Shown here: positions 1-64,000 of the stretch, in pieces
Layout of the letters: every line of letters begins with the position of its first letter
Numbering within the stretch: position 1 is the first letter of the stretch
Source of the DNA: Pontibacter pudoricolor
GTDB lineage: Bacteria > Bacteroidota > Bacteroidia > Cytophagales > Hymenobacteraceae
Length of the DNA stretch: 64,000 bases
Assembly: GCF_010092985.1 (NCBI RefSeq)
Contig: NZ_CP048106.1
Coordinates: 2,418,001-2,482,000, forward strand
Direction of reading: 5' to 3'
Made by a program: the position numbers and the translations under genes
The notes under the pieces: model-generated
The model's input: the letters and a program-made list of their open reading frames with translations, nothing else
The model's database searches: none
What the model was told of the DNA's origin: nothing

Positions 1-768
1 GGAGCGCCTCCGGGCTACGTTGGTTACGAAGAAGGTGGCCAGCTGACCGAGAAGATCCGCAGAAAGCCATACTCTGTAGTATTGCTGGATGAGATTGAGA
101 AAGCTCACCCTGATGTTTATAACCTGTTACTGCAGGTACTTGACGATGGTATTCTGACGGATGGTTTAGGCCGTAAGGTAGACTTCCGTAACACGATCAT
201 CATCATGACCTCTAACATTGGTGCCCGCGATCTTCAGGACTTTGGTGCCGGTATCGGTTTCATGTCGAAGACGAAGCAGGACAACGTGGATGAGATCATG
301 AAAGGAACTATAGCCAGTGCCTTGAAGAAGACCTTCTCGCCTGAGTTCCTGAACCGCTTGGATGACGTGATCGTGTTCAACTCACTTGGTCGTGAGGATA
401 TGCACAAGATCATTGAGCTATCGCTTGGCAAGCTGTTTAAGCGTGTTGAGGCCTTAGGTTACAAGATCGAACTTACAGCTAAAGCCAAGGACTTTGTAGC
501 TGAAAAAGGCTACGATCCGAAGTATGGTGCCCGTCCGCTTAACCGTGCTATTCAGAAATATATCGAAGACCCGATTGCGGAAGAGATACTGAAAGCCGAA
601 GTAAACCAGGGAGATGTGATCATGGTTGACCACGAAGAAGGCAAGGAACAACTTACTTTCACATCGAAGAAAAGTAGCAAAAAGGCAAAAAGCAATTTAG
701 CTTCTGATGAAATAGACGAAGATAAAGAGCCAACAAAGTCTACTGACGGCGATAAGTCGAAGGAATAA
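1..768 (+). CDS. clpC: ATP-dependent Clp protease ATPase ClpC, C-terminal part
   Basis: The window opens inside this gene; the frame is open from base 1 and stops with TAA at 766-768. The fragment is the second AAA+ module of a Hsp100 unfoldase. It has the GAPPGYVGY pore-loop region, a Walker B segment (VVLLDEIEKAHPDV), sensor 1 (IIMTSNIGA), the arginine-finger region FLNRLDD, and sensor 2 in the C-terminal small domain (YDPKYGARPL). The stretch ARDLQDFGAGIGF after sensor 1 favours ClpC over ClpB. The family unfolds proteins and feeds them to ClpP in the cytoplasm. The last 35 or so residues are a charged Lys/Asp/Ser tail without known function. The N-terminal domain and first AAA module lie outside the window. 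A terminator follows directly. Confidence 0.92.
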   Translation, partial: GAPPGYVGYEEGGQLTEKIRRKPYSVVLLDEIEKAHPDVYNLLLQVLDDGILTDGLGRKVDFRNTIIIMTSNIGARDLQDFGAGIGFMSKTKQDNVDEIMKGTIASALKKTFSPEFLNRLDDVIVFNSLGREDMHKIIELSLGKLFKRVEALGYKIELTAKAKDFVAEKGYDPKYGARPLNRAIQKYIEDPIAEEILKAEVNQGDVIMVDHEEGKEQLTFTSKKSSKKAKSNLASDEIDEDKEPTKSTDGDKSKE

Positions 769-787
769 GTTTCTTAAACTATAAAGA

Positions 788-820
788 AAGGCCATCCAAA
801 TCGGGTGGCCTTTTTGTTTT
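788..820 (+). terminator. Rho-independent terminator after clpC
   Basis: AGGCCATCC and GGGTGGCCT pair around a short loop (one G-T pair) and are followed by TTTTTGTTTT. It lies 20 bases after the clpC stop. Confidence 0.8.
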
Positions 821-840
821 GCATTAGGTTTAGAGATTGC

Positions 841-972
841 GCCCTCGCTCGCGTCCCGCGAGTGTGAGTTACTGGTGGCGCCCCGCCACATTCTGAAACT
901 ATAGTTTTGCTTTACCTATTAATGCGGCCGGAGTCCGCAGGTAGCTCACACTCGCGGGACACGAGCGAGGGC
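841..972. repeat. Long inverted-repeat element, family A copy 1
   Basis: Arms of 28 bases at 841-868 and 945-972 are reverse complements with one mismatch. They enclose smaller palindromes (around 875-890 and 924-940) and one AACTATAGTT site (896-905). A second copy with perfect arms lies at 45559-45680, with its inner segment inverted. The element fills most of the 363-base gap between clpC and the carboxylase gene, which otherwise holds only a terminator and a possible promoter. No protein-coding signal is credible in it. Confidence 0.85.
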
Positions 973-1076
973 AGGCATCTAATTGTTAAAAGTACTGAGC
1001 AAGACAACTATAGCATATACTGCATCTATATATCCAAAAAAGTATAGAACTATACCCGAAATCGAACTATAGTTTT

Positions 1077-1084
1077 TAAATTTG
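1077..1084 (+). promoter_or_regulatory. Possible -7 box of the carboxylase gene
   Basis: TAAATTTG fits the Bacteroidota -7 consensus TAnnTTTG and lies 47 bases before the start codon. No clear TTTG box is found about 19 bases upstream, so the call is weak. Confidence 0.3.
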
Positions 1085-1131
1085 GGGAACAGATAGACTG
1101 AACATTATAAATTAGTTATACTACAATTTAC

Positions 1132-62456: not shown

Positions 62457-62499
62457 GGCGGAATAGAACTATAATTTTAAGCTATGTACCACTAACCAT

Positions 62500-62646
62500 A
62501 CCGCTTGTTTGAGCGCAGCGGTAACTGGTGGTGGAGCATGGCAGCCAGTTTGTAACTGGCGAAACTATAGTTTGGGTTACGCGCCAGTTACAAACTGGCA
62601 CCACAGCAAGCCACAAGTTGCGCTGGCGCTAAACTTGCGGCATGAT
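62500..62646. repeat. Family B long inverted repeat, copy 3
   Basis: Arms 62503-62561 and 62580-62641 (GCAGCCAGTTTGTAACTGGC type) enclose a 15-base centre containing AAACTATAGTTTG. It is the shortest and most compact member of the family. Confidence 0.8.
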
Positions 62647-62739
62647 GAATTTATAATATTCCATTATTATATTAGGTTATAGTTGTATAATAATTAAGAA
62701 ATTAATATATTTAATTGACATCAACCAAAACTACAGAAA

Positions 62740-63837
62740 ATGGACTTTATAGACTCAATCAAAGCACTATCTGAAAAGGTAACAAGGCTGCAAAACAGTA
62801 TCCATACTGAAGAAGCAACGAAGAATGCATTTATTATGCCTTTTATAGCGGCTTTAGGCTATGATGTTTTCAATCCACATGAGGTAGTTCCGGAATTCAT
62901 TGCTGACTTGGGCATAAAGAAAGGAGAAAAGGTTGATTACTGTATTTTCAAAGATGATAAAGCCATCATTATTATTGAATGTAAGCACTGGAAAGAAGAT
63001 CTGAATGTACATAACAGTCAGTTGCACCGATATTTCCATGTTACCACCTCTAAGTTTGGCATACTTACTAATGGTATAATTTATAAGTTCTATACTGACT
63101 TGATAGAACCGAATAAGATGGATGACAAGCCCTTCTGGGAGTTTAATATCACTGAGATTACTGATGTTGCCGTAGCAGAATTAAAAAAATATCATAAAAG
63201 CACATTTGATATTGACAAGATCTTGAATGCTGCCACCGAGCTAAAATATAATCGGGAAATCAAAAAGATTATGTTGGAAGAAATGAATAATCCAACAGAT
63301 GCTTTTGTCAGACACTTTGCCAAGCAGATACATTCAGGTGTATTGACAGCCAAAGTAATGGAGCAGTTTACAGGTATAGTTAAAAAAGCTCTAAATCAGT
63401 ATGTGAGCGACTTAATTTCTGACAGATTGAAATCAGCACTTCAGAATGAAGCTAAGCGAGACTTTGCGGATACAGTATCCCTAACGCCTGAAAAGGATGC
63501 TGTTCTACCTGAAGAATCTGCTGAAAGTAAGGTAGTGACTACAGAGCTTGAGAAAGAAGCATTTTATATTGTTCGCTCTATTCTGAGAACTCAGTTCGAT
63601 ATAAACAGAATCGTTTACCGGGATGCACAGAGTTACTTCAGTGTATTAGTAGATGATAATAACAGAAAACCTGTTTGCAGATTATTCCTGGAAGGTATTA
63701 AGAAAAGTATTGTCGTGTTCGATGAAAACAGAAAGGAAACCAGGCACGAATTAACTTCCTTAGATGATATCTATTTATATACAGAGCAGTTAATTGCAAC
63801 GGCAACAGGGTATGATTCTAAAAAGGCAACAACGTAG
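62740..63837 (+). CDS. Orphan type I restriction HsdR-N-like nuclease domain protein
   Basis: The 365-residue protein begins with a restriction-type PD-(D/E)xK domain. Asp66 in EKVDYCIFKDD, Glu80 and Lys82 in IIIIECKHW form the catalytic core, and the N-terminal KNAFIMPFIAALGYDVFNPH is typical of type I R-subunit N-domains. The rest (about 180-365) is helical with an ordered alpha/beta end (FSVLVDDNNRKPVCRLFLEG). No helicase, specificity or methylase gene adjoins it, so it does not form a complete R-M system here. It is markedly more AT-rich than its neighbours and uses ATA, AAA and TTA codons heavily, a sign of recent acquisition. Real function is unknown. Confidence 0.85.
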   Translation: MDFIDSIKALSEKVTRLQNSIHTEEATKNAFIMPFIAALGYDVFNPHEVVPEFIADLGIKKGEKVDYCIFKDDKAIIIIECKHWKEDLNVHNSQLHRYFHVTTSKFGILTNGIIYKFYTDLIEPNKMDDKPFWEFNITEITDVAVAELKKYHKSTFDIDKILNAATELKYNREIKKIMLEEMNNPTDAFVRHFAKQIHSGVLTAKVMEQFTGIVKKALNQYVSDLISDRLKSALQNEAKRDFADTVSLTPEKDAVLPEESAESKVVTTELEKEAFYIVRSILRTQFDINRIVYRDAQSYFSVLVDDNNRKPVCRLFLEGIKKSIVVFDENRKETRHELTSLDDIYLYTEQLIATATGYDSKKATT

Positions 63838-63859
63838 ATTTAATTAACGATAAATAATT

Positions 63860-63897
63860 AGGCCCACATTCCTCTATGATAAGTAGAATGTGGGCCT
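63860..63897. terminator. Bidirectional terminator between the HsdR-N-like gene and the last gene
   Basis: AGGCCCACATTC and GAATGTGGGCCT form a perfect 12-bp stem around a 14-base loop, with T-rich ends on both strands. Confidence 0.87.
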
Positions 63898-63921
63898 TAC
63901 TTTTTCTAAGGAAGTACTACT

Positions 63922-64000
63922 CTACCCCCTCAAATAACCCACCATCAATTCAGCGGCGCGTTCGGCGGTGCGGTACTCTCCTATTTTCTCACGCACAAGG
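63922..64000 (-). CDS. C-terminal end of an unidentified protein
   Basis: The minus strand is open from the window edge to a TAG at 63922-63924, giving 25 codons that end REKIGEYRTAERAAELMVGY plus LRG. An amphipathic Ala/Glu-rich last helix like this occurs at the ends of glycosyltransferases such as LpxB, but the piece is too short to decide. The terminator at 63860-63897 lies just beyond its stop. Confidence 0.5.
   Translation of the reverse strand, partial: LVREKIGEYRTAERAAELMVGYLRG

What the first reader, a model, noticed from the sequence alone, without database searches (positions are those of the whole stretch)
1..64000. A hyper-abundant palindromic octamer (CTATAGTT / AACTATAG) saturates genes and spacers
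The word CTATAGTT or its complement AACTATAG, and the shorter AACTATA, occurs on both strands throughout the window, by eye well over a hundred times. About two would be expected by chance in 64 kb at equal base composition. The full form AACTATAGTT is a perfect palindrome (for example 896-905). It occurs inside genes (often as Thr-Ile-Val, Ile-Val or Asn-Tyr-Lys codons), beside stop codons, in terminator tips and between repeat modules. This is the pattern of a genome-wide iterated palindrome, comparable in kind to HIP1 of cyanobacteria. I know of no description of this one.
Basis: partly seen in the sequence, partly recalled or inferred. Interest (0 to 1): 0.85.

Follow-up and report, generated by a model that had tools for sequence, protein, structure and literature searches.

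The report
Genome-wide DNA word with species dialects
In most of the examined genomes of one bacterial genus, likely Pontibacter, a short DNA word is repeated thousands of times, and related species use different spellings of it around the same TATA core; the word likely marks the species' own DNA for uptake or recombination, as similar words do in Neisseria.

Summary
The window holds 130 copies of the octamer, the whole genome 7,058 against 167 of the reversed word. The core is the seven-base, non-palindromic AACTATA, usually followed by G or A; the palindrome AACTATAGTT is that word overlapping its own complement. In genes it is about 7-fold above synonymous-codon shuffles; between genes it is over three times denser. 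It is one spelling of a genus-wide word: AAGTATA(A), probably ancestral; AACTATA(G/A) in this clade; AGGTATA(G) in another; CTATATA(R) in one genome; two of 19 genomes show none. The spellings follow the tree. AACTATA and AAGTATA are mostly conserved above control words between genomes that use them, and AAGTATA is not in G000, which dropped it. New copies arise by varied substitutions at all seven positions. Between genes there is no replication polarity. Three of four DNA methyltransferase families are missing from many word-bearing genomes (the fourth occurs in all genomes, wordless too), and no type IV pilus ATPase is convincing. This resembles the DNA-uptake-sequence dialects of Neisseriaceae more than HIP1, but uptake is untested and the receptor unknown. 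I commit to word-biased uptake or recombination (0.45).

The parts
1..64000 (.). Word AACTATA / TATAGTT scattered over the window (105 on +, 129 on -; 210 distinct places)
897..906 (.).
20640..21560 (.). Intergenic cluster of words between repeat modules (e.g. 20701, 20799, 20903, 20979, 20987, 21136, 21156, 21326, 21422)
28775..29165 (.). Second intergenic cluster of words between interspersed repeat modules; it has many partial matches in other genomes of the genus
42733..42742 (.). AACTATAGTT inside a gene (ORF 42062-43402)
42872..42881 (.). AACTATAGTT inside the same gene
62544..62599 (+). Perfect 18-bp inverted repeat (62544-62561 and 62582-62599) with AACTATAGTT (62563-62572) in its loop; the tRNA-Thr called over it by ARAGORN is a false positive

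Best explanation
The genome carries a dense DNA word, AACTATA followed mostly by G or A, that is one dialect of a genus-wide family of words sharing the TATA core, and it most likely accumulates because DNA bearing it would be preferentially taken up or recombined, a molecular drive of the DNA-uptake-sequence type. Shown: the enrichment, the dialects, their fit to the tree, conservation of AACTATA and AAGTATA above control words between most genome pairs that use them and loss of AAGTATA in G000, gain by ordinary substitutions at every position, highest density between genes, and no replication polarity between genes. Inferred: a protein that reads the word (contacting TATAR, with a changeable left half), that it acts on incoming or donor DNA, and that changes in this protein caused the dialect switches. 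Not shown: uptake, the receptor, competence of any of these strains.
For: Dialects: AACTATAG in G000 7,058 and G202 6,288 (G306 2,617, G362 2,002, G315 907); AAGTATAA 3,326-6,128 in 11 of 19 genus genomes (controls 90-189), 2,125 in G202; AGGTATAG 5,041 / 3,608 / 2,823 in G336 / G386 / G312 (controls 133 / 96 / 123); CTATATAR 1,798 in G140 (control 207). All keep TATA, as all Neisseriaceae dialects keep CTG (PMC3630211 passages). They follow the tree. Conservation in orthologous genes: AACTATA of G202 kept in G000 at 69 of 107 (controls 36 of 143); AAGTATA of G202 kept in G362 at 64 of 93 (controls 50 of 133) but in G000 at 15 of 96. Gains against G237 touch all seven positions and eight substitution types. 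One-off words 1.65-fold, two-off 1.04-fold in G000. Between genes 6.6/kb, in genes 1.9/kb. Between genes leading:lagging 329:296. PMC1939737 passages list the same traits for uptake sequences. ComEC in 27 of 27 genomes.
Against: No convincing type IV pilus / type II secretion ATPase: PF00437 passes its cut-off in 1 of 27 genomes, with a 60-residue weak stretch, while it rings in 14 of 14 control genomes, so no ComP-type pilin machine is likely. ComEC is equally present in other genera and in the two wordless genomes. In-gene spacing is close to random; the 100-200 bp excess in G000 (123 against 91.9, sd 8.2) did not recur in six other genomes, and I would expect uptake of long fragments to favour even spacing. 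Between genes, about one word per 150 bp exceeds what long fragments need. Some conservation tests fail: AAGTATA of G315 in G237 9 of 25 with controls 7 of 20, AACTATA of G202 in G362 42 of 102 with controls 50 of 133. The one-off excess in G237 (1.35) rests largely on AAGTATG. Competence in Pontibacter was not met in any listing I saw (one search lists 10 of 1,019 papers).
Confidence: 0.45

Rival explanations
1. The word is the binding site of an abundant sequence-specific DNA-binding or nucleoid protein, and cells with more sites are favoured; the dialects follow changes in that protein.
For: Partly two-fold shape AAC-TATA-GTT in G000; sites act almost independently, in-gene spacing near random above 20 bp; high density between genes; same-strand spacings of 8, 12 and 20 bp in intergenic linkers.
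Against: The AAGTATA and AGGTATA dialects are mostly asymmetric; two genomes show no such word; the spacings of 8/12/20 come largely from one module-linker family, seen with its linkers only in G000.
Confidence: 0.2
2. HIP1-like: a DNA methyltransferase reads the word, and methylation-directed repair creates and keeps it.
For: Iterated word over the genome; one-off forms of AACTATAGTT lie mostly at its outer positions, as for HIP1; HIP1 has cognate enzymes and a repair model (PMC4390886, abstract and first part of section 3.4). PF02384 has a match in 27 of 27 genomes.
Against: PF01555 is absent in 6 of 19 genus genomes including G000, PF00145 in 11 of 19, PF02086 in 14 of 19. PF02384 also rings in all wordless genomes, partly in 300-residue proteins with weak matches, and the best match ranges from 57 bits in a 1,003-residue frame (G315) to 396 bits (G185); orthology was not tested. 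Gains touch all positions and many substitution types. Other families were not searched.
Confidence: 0.14
3. Chi-like: the word regulates the end-resecting nuclease during recombination, and its spelling changes with the nuclease.
For: 7-8 bases, asymmetric, very frequent, different between species.
Against: No replication polarity between genes (329:296, p 0.2); the coding bias 355:256 (0.58) matches gene orientation (0.60 of coding bases on the leading strand). Palindromic placement is common in G000.
Confidence: 0.1
4. A mutation or repair bias without selection or drive writes the word.
For: Highest density where constraint should be lowest; few copies in a stretch matched to elongation factor and RNA polymerase genes.
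Against: Substitutions of eight types at all seven positions converge on one word; gained words carry amino-acid changes in 54 of 82, against 4,973 of 9,874 control 7-mers; in most pairs tested words are conserved above controls.
Confidence: 0.08
5. The word is a piece of interspersed repeat elements.
For: Intergenic module-linker families in G000 carry two or three words each.
Against: In genes, aligned orthologs differ by substitutions, rarely by gaps; flanks beyond three bases are near background; genomes of other dialects have similar intergenic densities (5.1-6.2/kb for their main word in seven of eight, 2.4 in G386) with few of these modules in the stretches sampled.
Confidence: 0.03

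Closest known systems
DNA uptake sequence (DUS) dialects of Neisseriaceae
   Same: Thousands of short asymmetric words; species dialects that follow the phylogeny and keep a fixed core (CTG there, TATA here); some relatives without any; permissive intergenic DNA; the highest reported density, kingDUS 5,918 in 2.4 Mb (PMC3630211 passages), is close to one AACTATA place per 397 bp here.
   Different: Other phylum; no convincing type IV pilus ATPase; uptake and receptor untested; core AT-rich; 7-8 bases rather than 10-12; one dialect (CTATATAR, G140) is nearly palindromic.
Uptake signal sequence (USS) of Pasteurellaceae
   Same: No chromosomal orientation bias, more in non-coding DNA than expected, excess of near-miss forms (PMC1939737 passages).
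   Different: At least four spellings within one genus here; different sequence; in-gene spacing close to random.
HIP1 and alternate HIPs of cyanobacteria
   Same: Genome-wide iterated word with deviations biased to its ends, and exceptional species that lack or replace it (PMC4390886, abstract; here).
   Different: HIPs are palindromes with cognate methyltransferases; here the core is asymmetric and no cognate enzyme was identified. Alternate HIPs are different GC-rich words, not near-identical spellings.
Chi sites
   Same: Frequent short asymmetric words that differ between species (recalled).
   Different: No replication polarity between genes.

Membership tests
DUS/USS-type uptake sequence | Short word in thousands of copies on both strands, far above chance | tested here: met
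   7,058 copies against 167 for the reversed word
DUS/USS-type uptake sequence | No chromosomal orientation bias | tested here: met
   Between genes 329:296 leading:lagging, p 0.2; the coding bias follows gene orientation
DUS/USS-type uptake sequence | Preferential location in non-coding and weakly constrained DNA | tested here: met
   6.59/kb against 1.93/kb; 17 strand-sites in a 20 kb stretch matched to elongation factor and RNA polymerase genes
DUS/USS-type uptake sequence | Dialects with a fixed core that follow phylogeny | tested here: met
DUS/USS-type uptake sequence | Excess of one-mismatch forms | tested here: met
   1.65-fold one-off, 1.04-fold two-off in G000; 1.35 and 1.00 in G237, the former mostly AAGTATG; control ATATCAA 0.95
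DUS/USS-type uptake sequence | Type IV pilus uptake machine with a word-binding minor pilin | tested here: not met
   PF00437 over its cut-off in 1 of 27 genomes, a 60-residue weak match in a protein that looks like a helicase by eye; pilins were not searched
DUS/USS-type uptake sequence | Word-dependent DNA uptake | not testable with these tools
   Needs the bench
HIP | Palindromic word | tested here: not met
   Core AACTATA asymmetric; AAGTATAA and AGGTATAG not palindromic; CTATATAG of G140 is palindromic
HIP | One-letter deviations biased to the ends of the word | tested here: met
   One-off forms of AACTATAGTT: 5-39 at positions 1, 2, 9, 10; 4-5 at 3 and 8; 0-2 at 4-7
HIP | Cognate DNA methyltransferase present when the word is abundant | tested here: inconclusive
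   PF01555, PF00145 and PF02086 each missing from many word-bearing genomes; PF02384 matches in 27 of 27 including wordless ones, orthology untested; other families not searched
HIP | Methylated base at the word | not testable with these tools
   No methylome data
Chi | Polarity with replication | tested here: not met
Chi | Stimulates recombination / protects from nuclease | not testable with these tools
   Needs the bench

The most novel reading that the evidence does not exclude
This genus, likely Pontibacter, has a self-DNA recognition language: a TATA-core word whose left half was respelled at least three times within the genus (AAGTATA to AACTATA, AGGTATA and TATATA) and lost twice, read by an unknown receptor that works without type IV pili. 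It would be the first uptake-sequence system in Bacteroidota that my searches know of, and a barrier to gene flow between sister species.
Probability: 0.4. Interest if true: 0.92.

Novelty: new variant of a known kind. Interest (0 to 1): 0.82.

Why it matters
Dense genome-wide words with a known reader are few. If uptake is the cause, it would show how Bacteroidota without type IV pili choose DNA, and how such a language switches. If not, some other force rewrites thousands of sites per genome.

Tried and rejected
Maximal-order Markov tests hide the word, because its sub-words are themselves inflated; low orders and synonymous-codon shuffles were used instead. A low-word stretch at 2.80 Mb (28 mostly small genes on one strand) looked like a prophage but matches elongation factor and RNA polymerase families. 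A low-word stretch at 0.70 Mb matches SusD, ABC transporter, M16 peptidase and GmrSD families. The weak T2SSE matches in all 19 genus genomes fall in frames of 646-683 residues; the G362 copy looks like an SF1 helicase by eye. The tRNA-Thr call at 62515 is a hairpin. The idea that AACTATA copies are converted AAGTATA copies failed: only 7 of 63 align to AAGTATA in G237. The 100-200 bp spacing in G000 genes did not recur in six other genomes pooled, where only gaps under 20 bp are short of expectation (46 against 71). Amino-acid cost is mixed: identity under unshared G000 words against G306 is 52 of 75 (0.69) with 0.82 for other differing 7-mers, but against G237 0.70 with 0.745, and G237 words against G000 0.79 with 0.745. 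Naming species through genome contigs gave one record that names the genus. The first parsimony count gave few gains. On re-checking, the claim that no methyltransferase family is shared by all word-bearing genomes was too strong, since PF02384 matches in all 27; I moved the HIP-like reading from 0.12 to 0.14.
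Full report
WHAT IS THERE. The window holds CTATAGTT 70 times, AACTATAG 60, AACTATA 105 and TATAGTT 129 times on the + strand, and AACTATAGTT 24 times, making 210 distinct places. The whole genome has AACTATAG 7,058 times on both strands against 167 of the reversed word. In 464 kb of this genome AACTATA occurs 687 times per strand against 44.5 expected from an order-2 Markov model. In 564 kb there is one place per 397 bp.

WHAT THE WORD IS. 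Substitution tables show that the four central TATA positions of AACTATAGTT tolerate almost nothing, while the outermost positions tolerate most. The unit is AACTATA followed by G or A. AACTATAGTT is two such units overlapping on opposite strands. It occurs at 252 of 1,374 strand-sites where 23.4 are expected with random flanks, 10.8-fold, of the order of the 15-fold enrichment of the word itself, so the palindrome is best seen as a by-product. In AAGTATA genomes the palindromic extension ranges from 0 against 1.9 expected (G306) to 12 against 2.6 (G237); in AGGTATA genomes it is 2, 2 and 0 against 0.9, 0.5 and 0.6.

NOT CODON BIAS. In 386 genes called by a simple script, AACTATA occurs 448 times in sense and 270 in antisense, against 81.6 and 25.4 when synonymous codons are shuffled within genes. 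Density is 1.93 per kb in genes and 6.6-6.8 per kb between genes. Part of the intergenic excess lies in linkers between repeat modules. Gene calls are approximate. In eight other genomes the main word is 4.7- to 9.2-fold above the same shuffles.

DIALECTS. In 390 genomes of the order (a sample drawn by the tool), only genomes of the own genus exceed 567 AACTATAG: G000 7,058, G202 6,288, G306 2,617, G362 2,002 and G315 907; the other 14 of 19 genus genomes have 86-214. Three genomes outside the genus pass five times their control at low counts (G129 350, G186 290, G123 167). k-mer counts in sister genomes showed other words, and whole-genome counts confirmed them: AAGTATAA at 3,326-6,128 in 11 of 19, AGGTATAG at 2,823-5,041 in three, CTATATAR 1,798 in G140. 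G185 (AAGTATAA 762, control 286) and G303 (260, control 204) have no clear word of this kind. So 17 of 19 have at least one of the four words at five times its control or more. A contig of G306 has the length of CANMMP010000001.1, titled 'uncultured Pontibacter sp.'; the genus name rests on that record title. On a seven-gene protein tree (midpoint root, missing data in several genomes, some weak nodes) AAGTATAA is spread over the major branches, so it is probably ancestral; AACTATA marks the clade of G315, G306, G000, G202 and G362; AGGTATAG marks G386, G336 and G312; TATATAR sits on G140, whose sister G185 has only a weak trace.

MAINTENANCE AND TURNOVER. In 72 genes with orthologs (of 123 called), AACTATA of G202 is kept in G000 at 69 of 107 places, while 16 pooled control words are kept at 36 of 143. 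AAGTATA of G202 is kept in G362 at 64 of 93 (controls 50 of 133) but in G000 at only 15 of 96. AAGTATA of G237 is kept in G362 at 34 of 70 (controls 18 of 99) and in G000 at 9 of 80 (controls 16 of 109). G202 and G306 keep both words (45 of 71 and 36 of 67, controls 26 of 101, from G202 to G306); G000 has dropped AAGTATA. Exceptions: AACTATA is kept in G362 hardly above controls (50 of 140 with 40 of 144 from G000; 42 of 102 with 50 of 133 from G202), and AAGTATA of G315 in G237 is at control level (9 of 25 with 7 of 20). Conservation of AGGTATA and TATATA among their own users was not tested. Of 84 places with AACTATA in at least two of G000, G202, G306 and G362, G237 has the word in 2 and differs by 1, 2, 3, 4 or 5 letters in 17, 26, 24, 12 and 3; in those with one or two differences the changes fall on all seven positions and eight substitution types. 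A base-specific repair bias does not give this.

WHAT COULD READ IT. Of four DNA methyltransferase families, PF01555 is missing in 6, PF00145 in 11 and PF02086 in 14 of 19 genus genomes. PF02384 matches in 27 of 27 genomes, wordless ones too, with proteins of very different length and score; G315 and G371, both with AAGTATAA, have only matches of 57 and 65 bits at best, in frames of about 1,000 residues. Orthology was not tested and other families were not searched. [quoted passage not shown] ComEC, the inner-membrane DNA channel, is in 27 of 27 genomes (in G336 with a stop inside the matched frame), so it does not discriminate. Bacteroidota can be competent: Riemerella columbina prefers its own DNA, with the responsible sequence unknown (PMC7965970, section 16 read).

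READING. The set of traits (both strands, no polarity between genes, densest where constraint is low, near-miss halo, dialects with a fixed core that follow the phylogeny, wordless relatives) is that described for uptake sequences (PMC3630211 and PMC1939737, passages read). I therefore favour drive by word-biased uptake or recombination at 0.45. It is not filed as a DUS: the pilus machine was tested and not met, and uptake was not testable. Against it stand near-random spacing, the very high intergenic density, and the lack of any report of competence in the listings I saw. The main rival is selection for sites of a DNA-binding protein.

PRINT. Searches in which I saw no description of this word (papers listed of papers found): HIP1 terms (20 of 269), overrepresented palindromes in Bacteroidetes (10 of 60), Pontibacter methylome (0 found), Pontibacter repeat/octamer (8 of 9,468), uptake sequence with Pontibacter/Hymenobacter/Cytophaga (8 of 28), uptake signal sequence with Bacteroidota (0), at least two of four octamers of the dialects (0), Pontibacter with transformation terms (10 of 1,019). 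The library holds open-licence papers only. I read PMC4390886 (outline, abstract, first part of section 3.4), passages of PMC3630211 and PMC1939737, and passages plus section 16 of PMC7965970; the rest as listings.

Noticed in passing
window 62515-62608: ARAGORN calls a 94-base tRNA-Thr that is really an 18-bp inverted-repeat hairpin with AACTATAGTT in its loop; Rfam finds nothing in the window at gathering scores.
   Followed up: yes
window 20640-21560 and 28775-29165: Mosaic intergenic repeats: modules ending in GGTGGGTTAAAAC, AAGGGGTAAAAC, GGGATGACAAAC or GAGGGCACCA joined by linkers with two or three words at spacings 8, 12 and 20 bp; with these linkers seen in G000 only, though the second element has partial matches in other genomes of the genus.
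   Followed up: partly
L081, L082 (G246, G333; another genus of the family): A different over-represented word, CCTAGG / ACCTAGG (28 against 7.1 and 13.5 against 1.5 per strand in 40 kb), perhaps another iterated word.
   Followed up: no
L077, L220-L224 (G177, another genus of the family): Palindrome TCCGGA over-represented (113 against 35.5 in 120 kb); G303 also shows TCCGGA and CTCCGGAG.
   Followed up: no
L033-L052 (G000 chromosome): GC-skew signs in 20 kb samples suggest an origin near 3.3 Mb and a terminus near 1.0 Mb of the held contig.
   Followed up: partly
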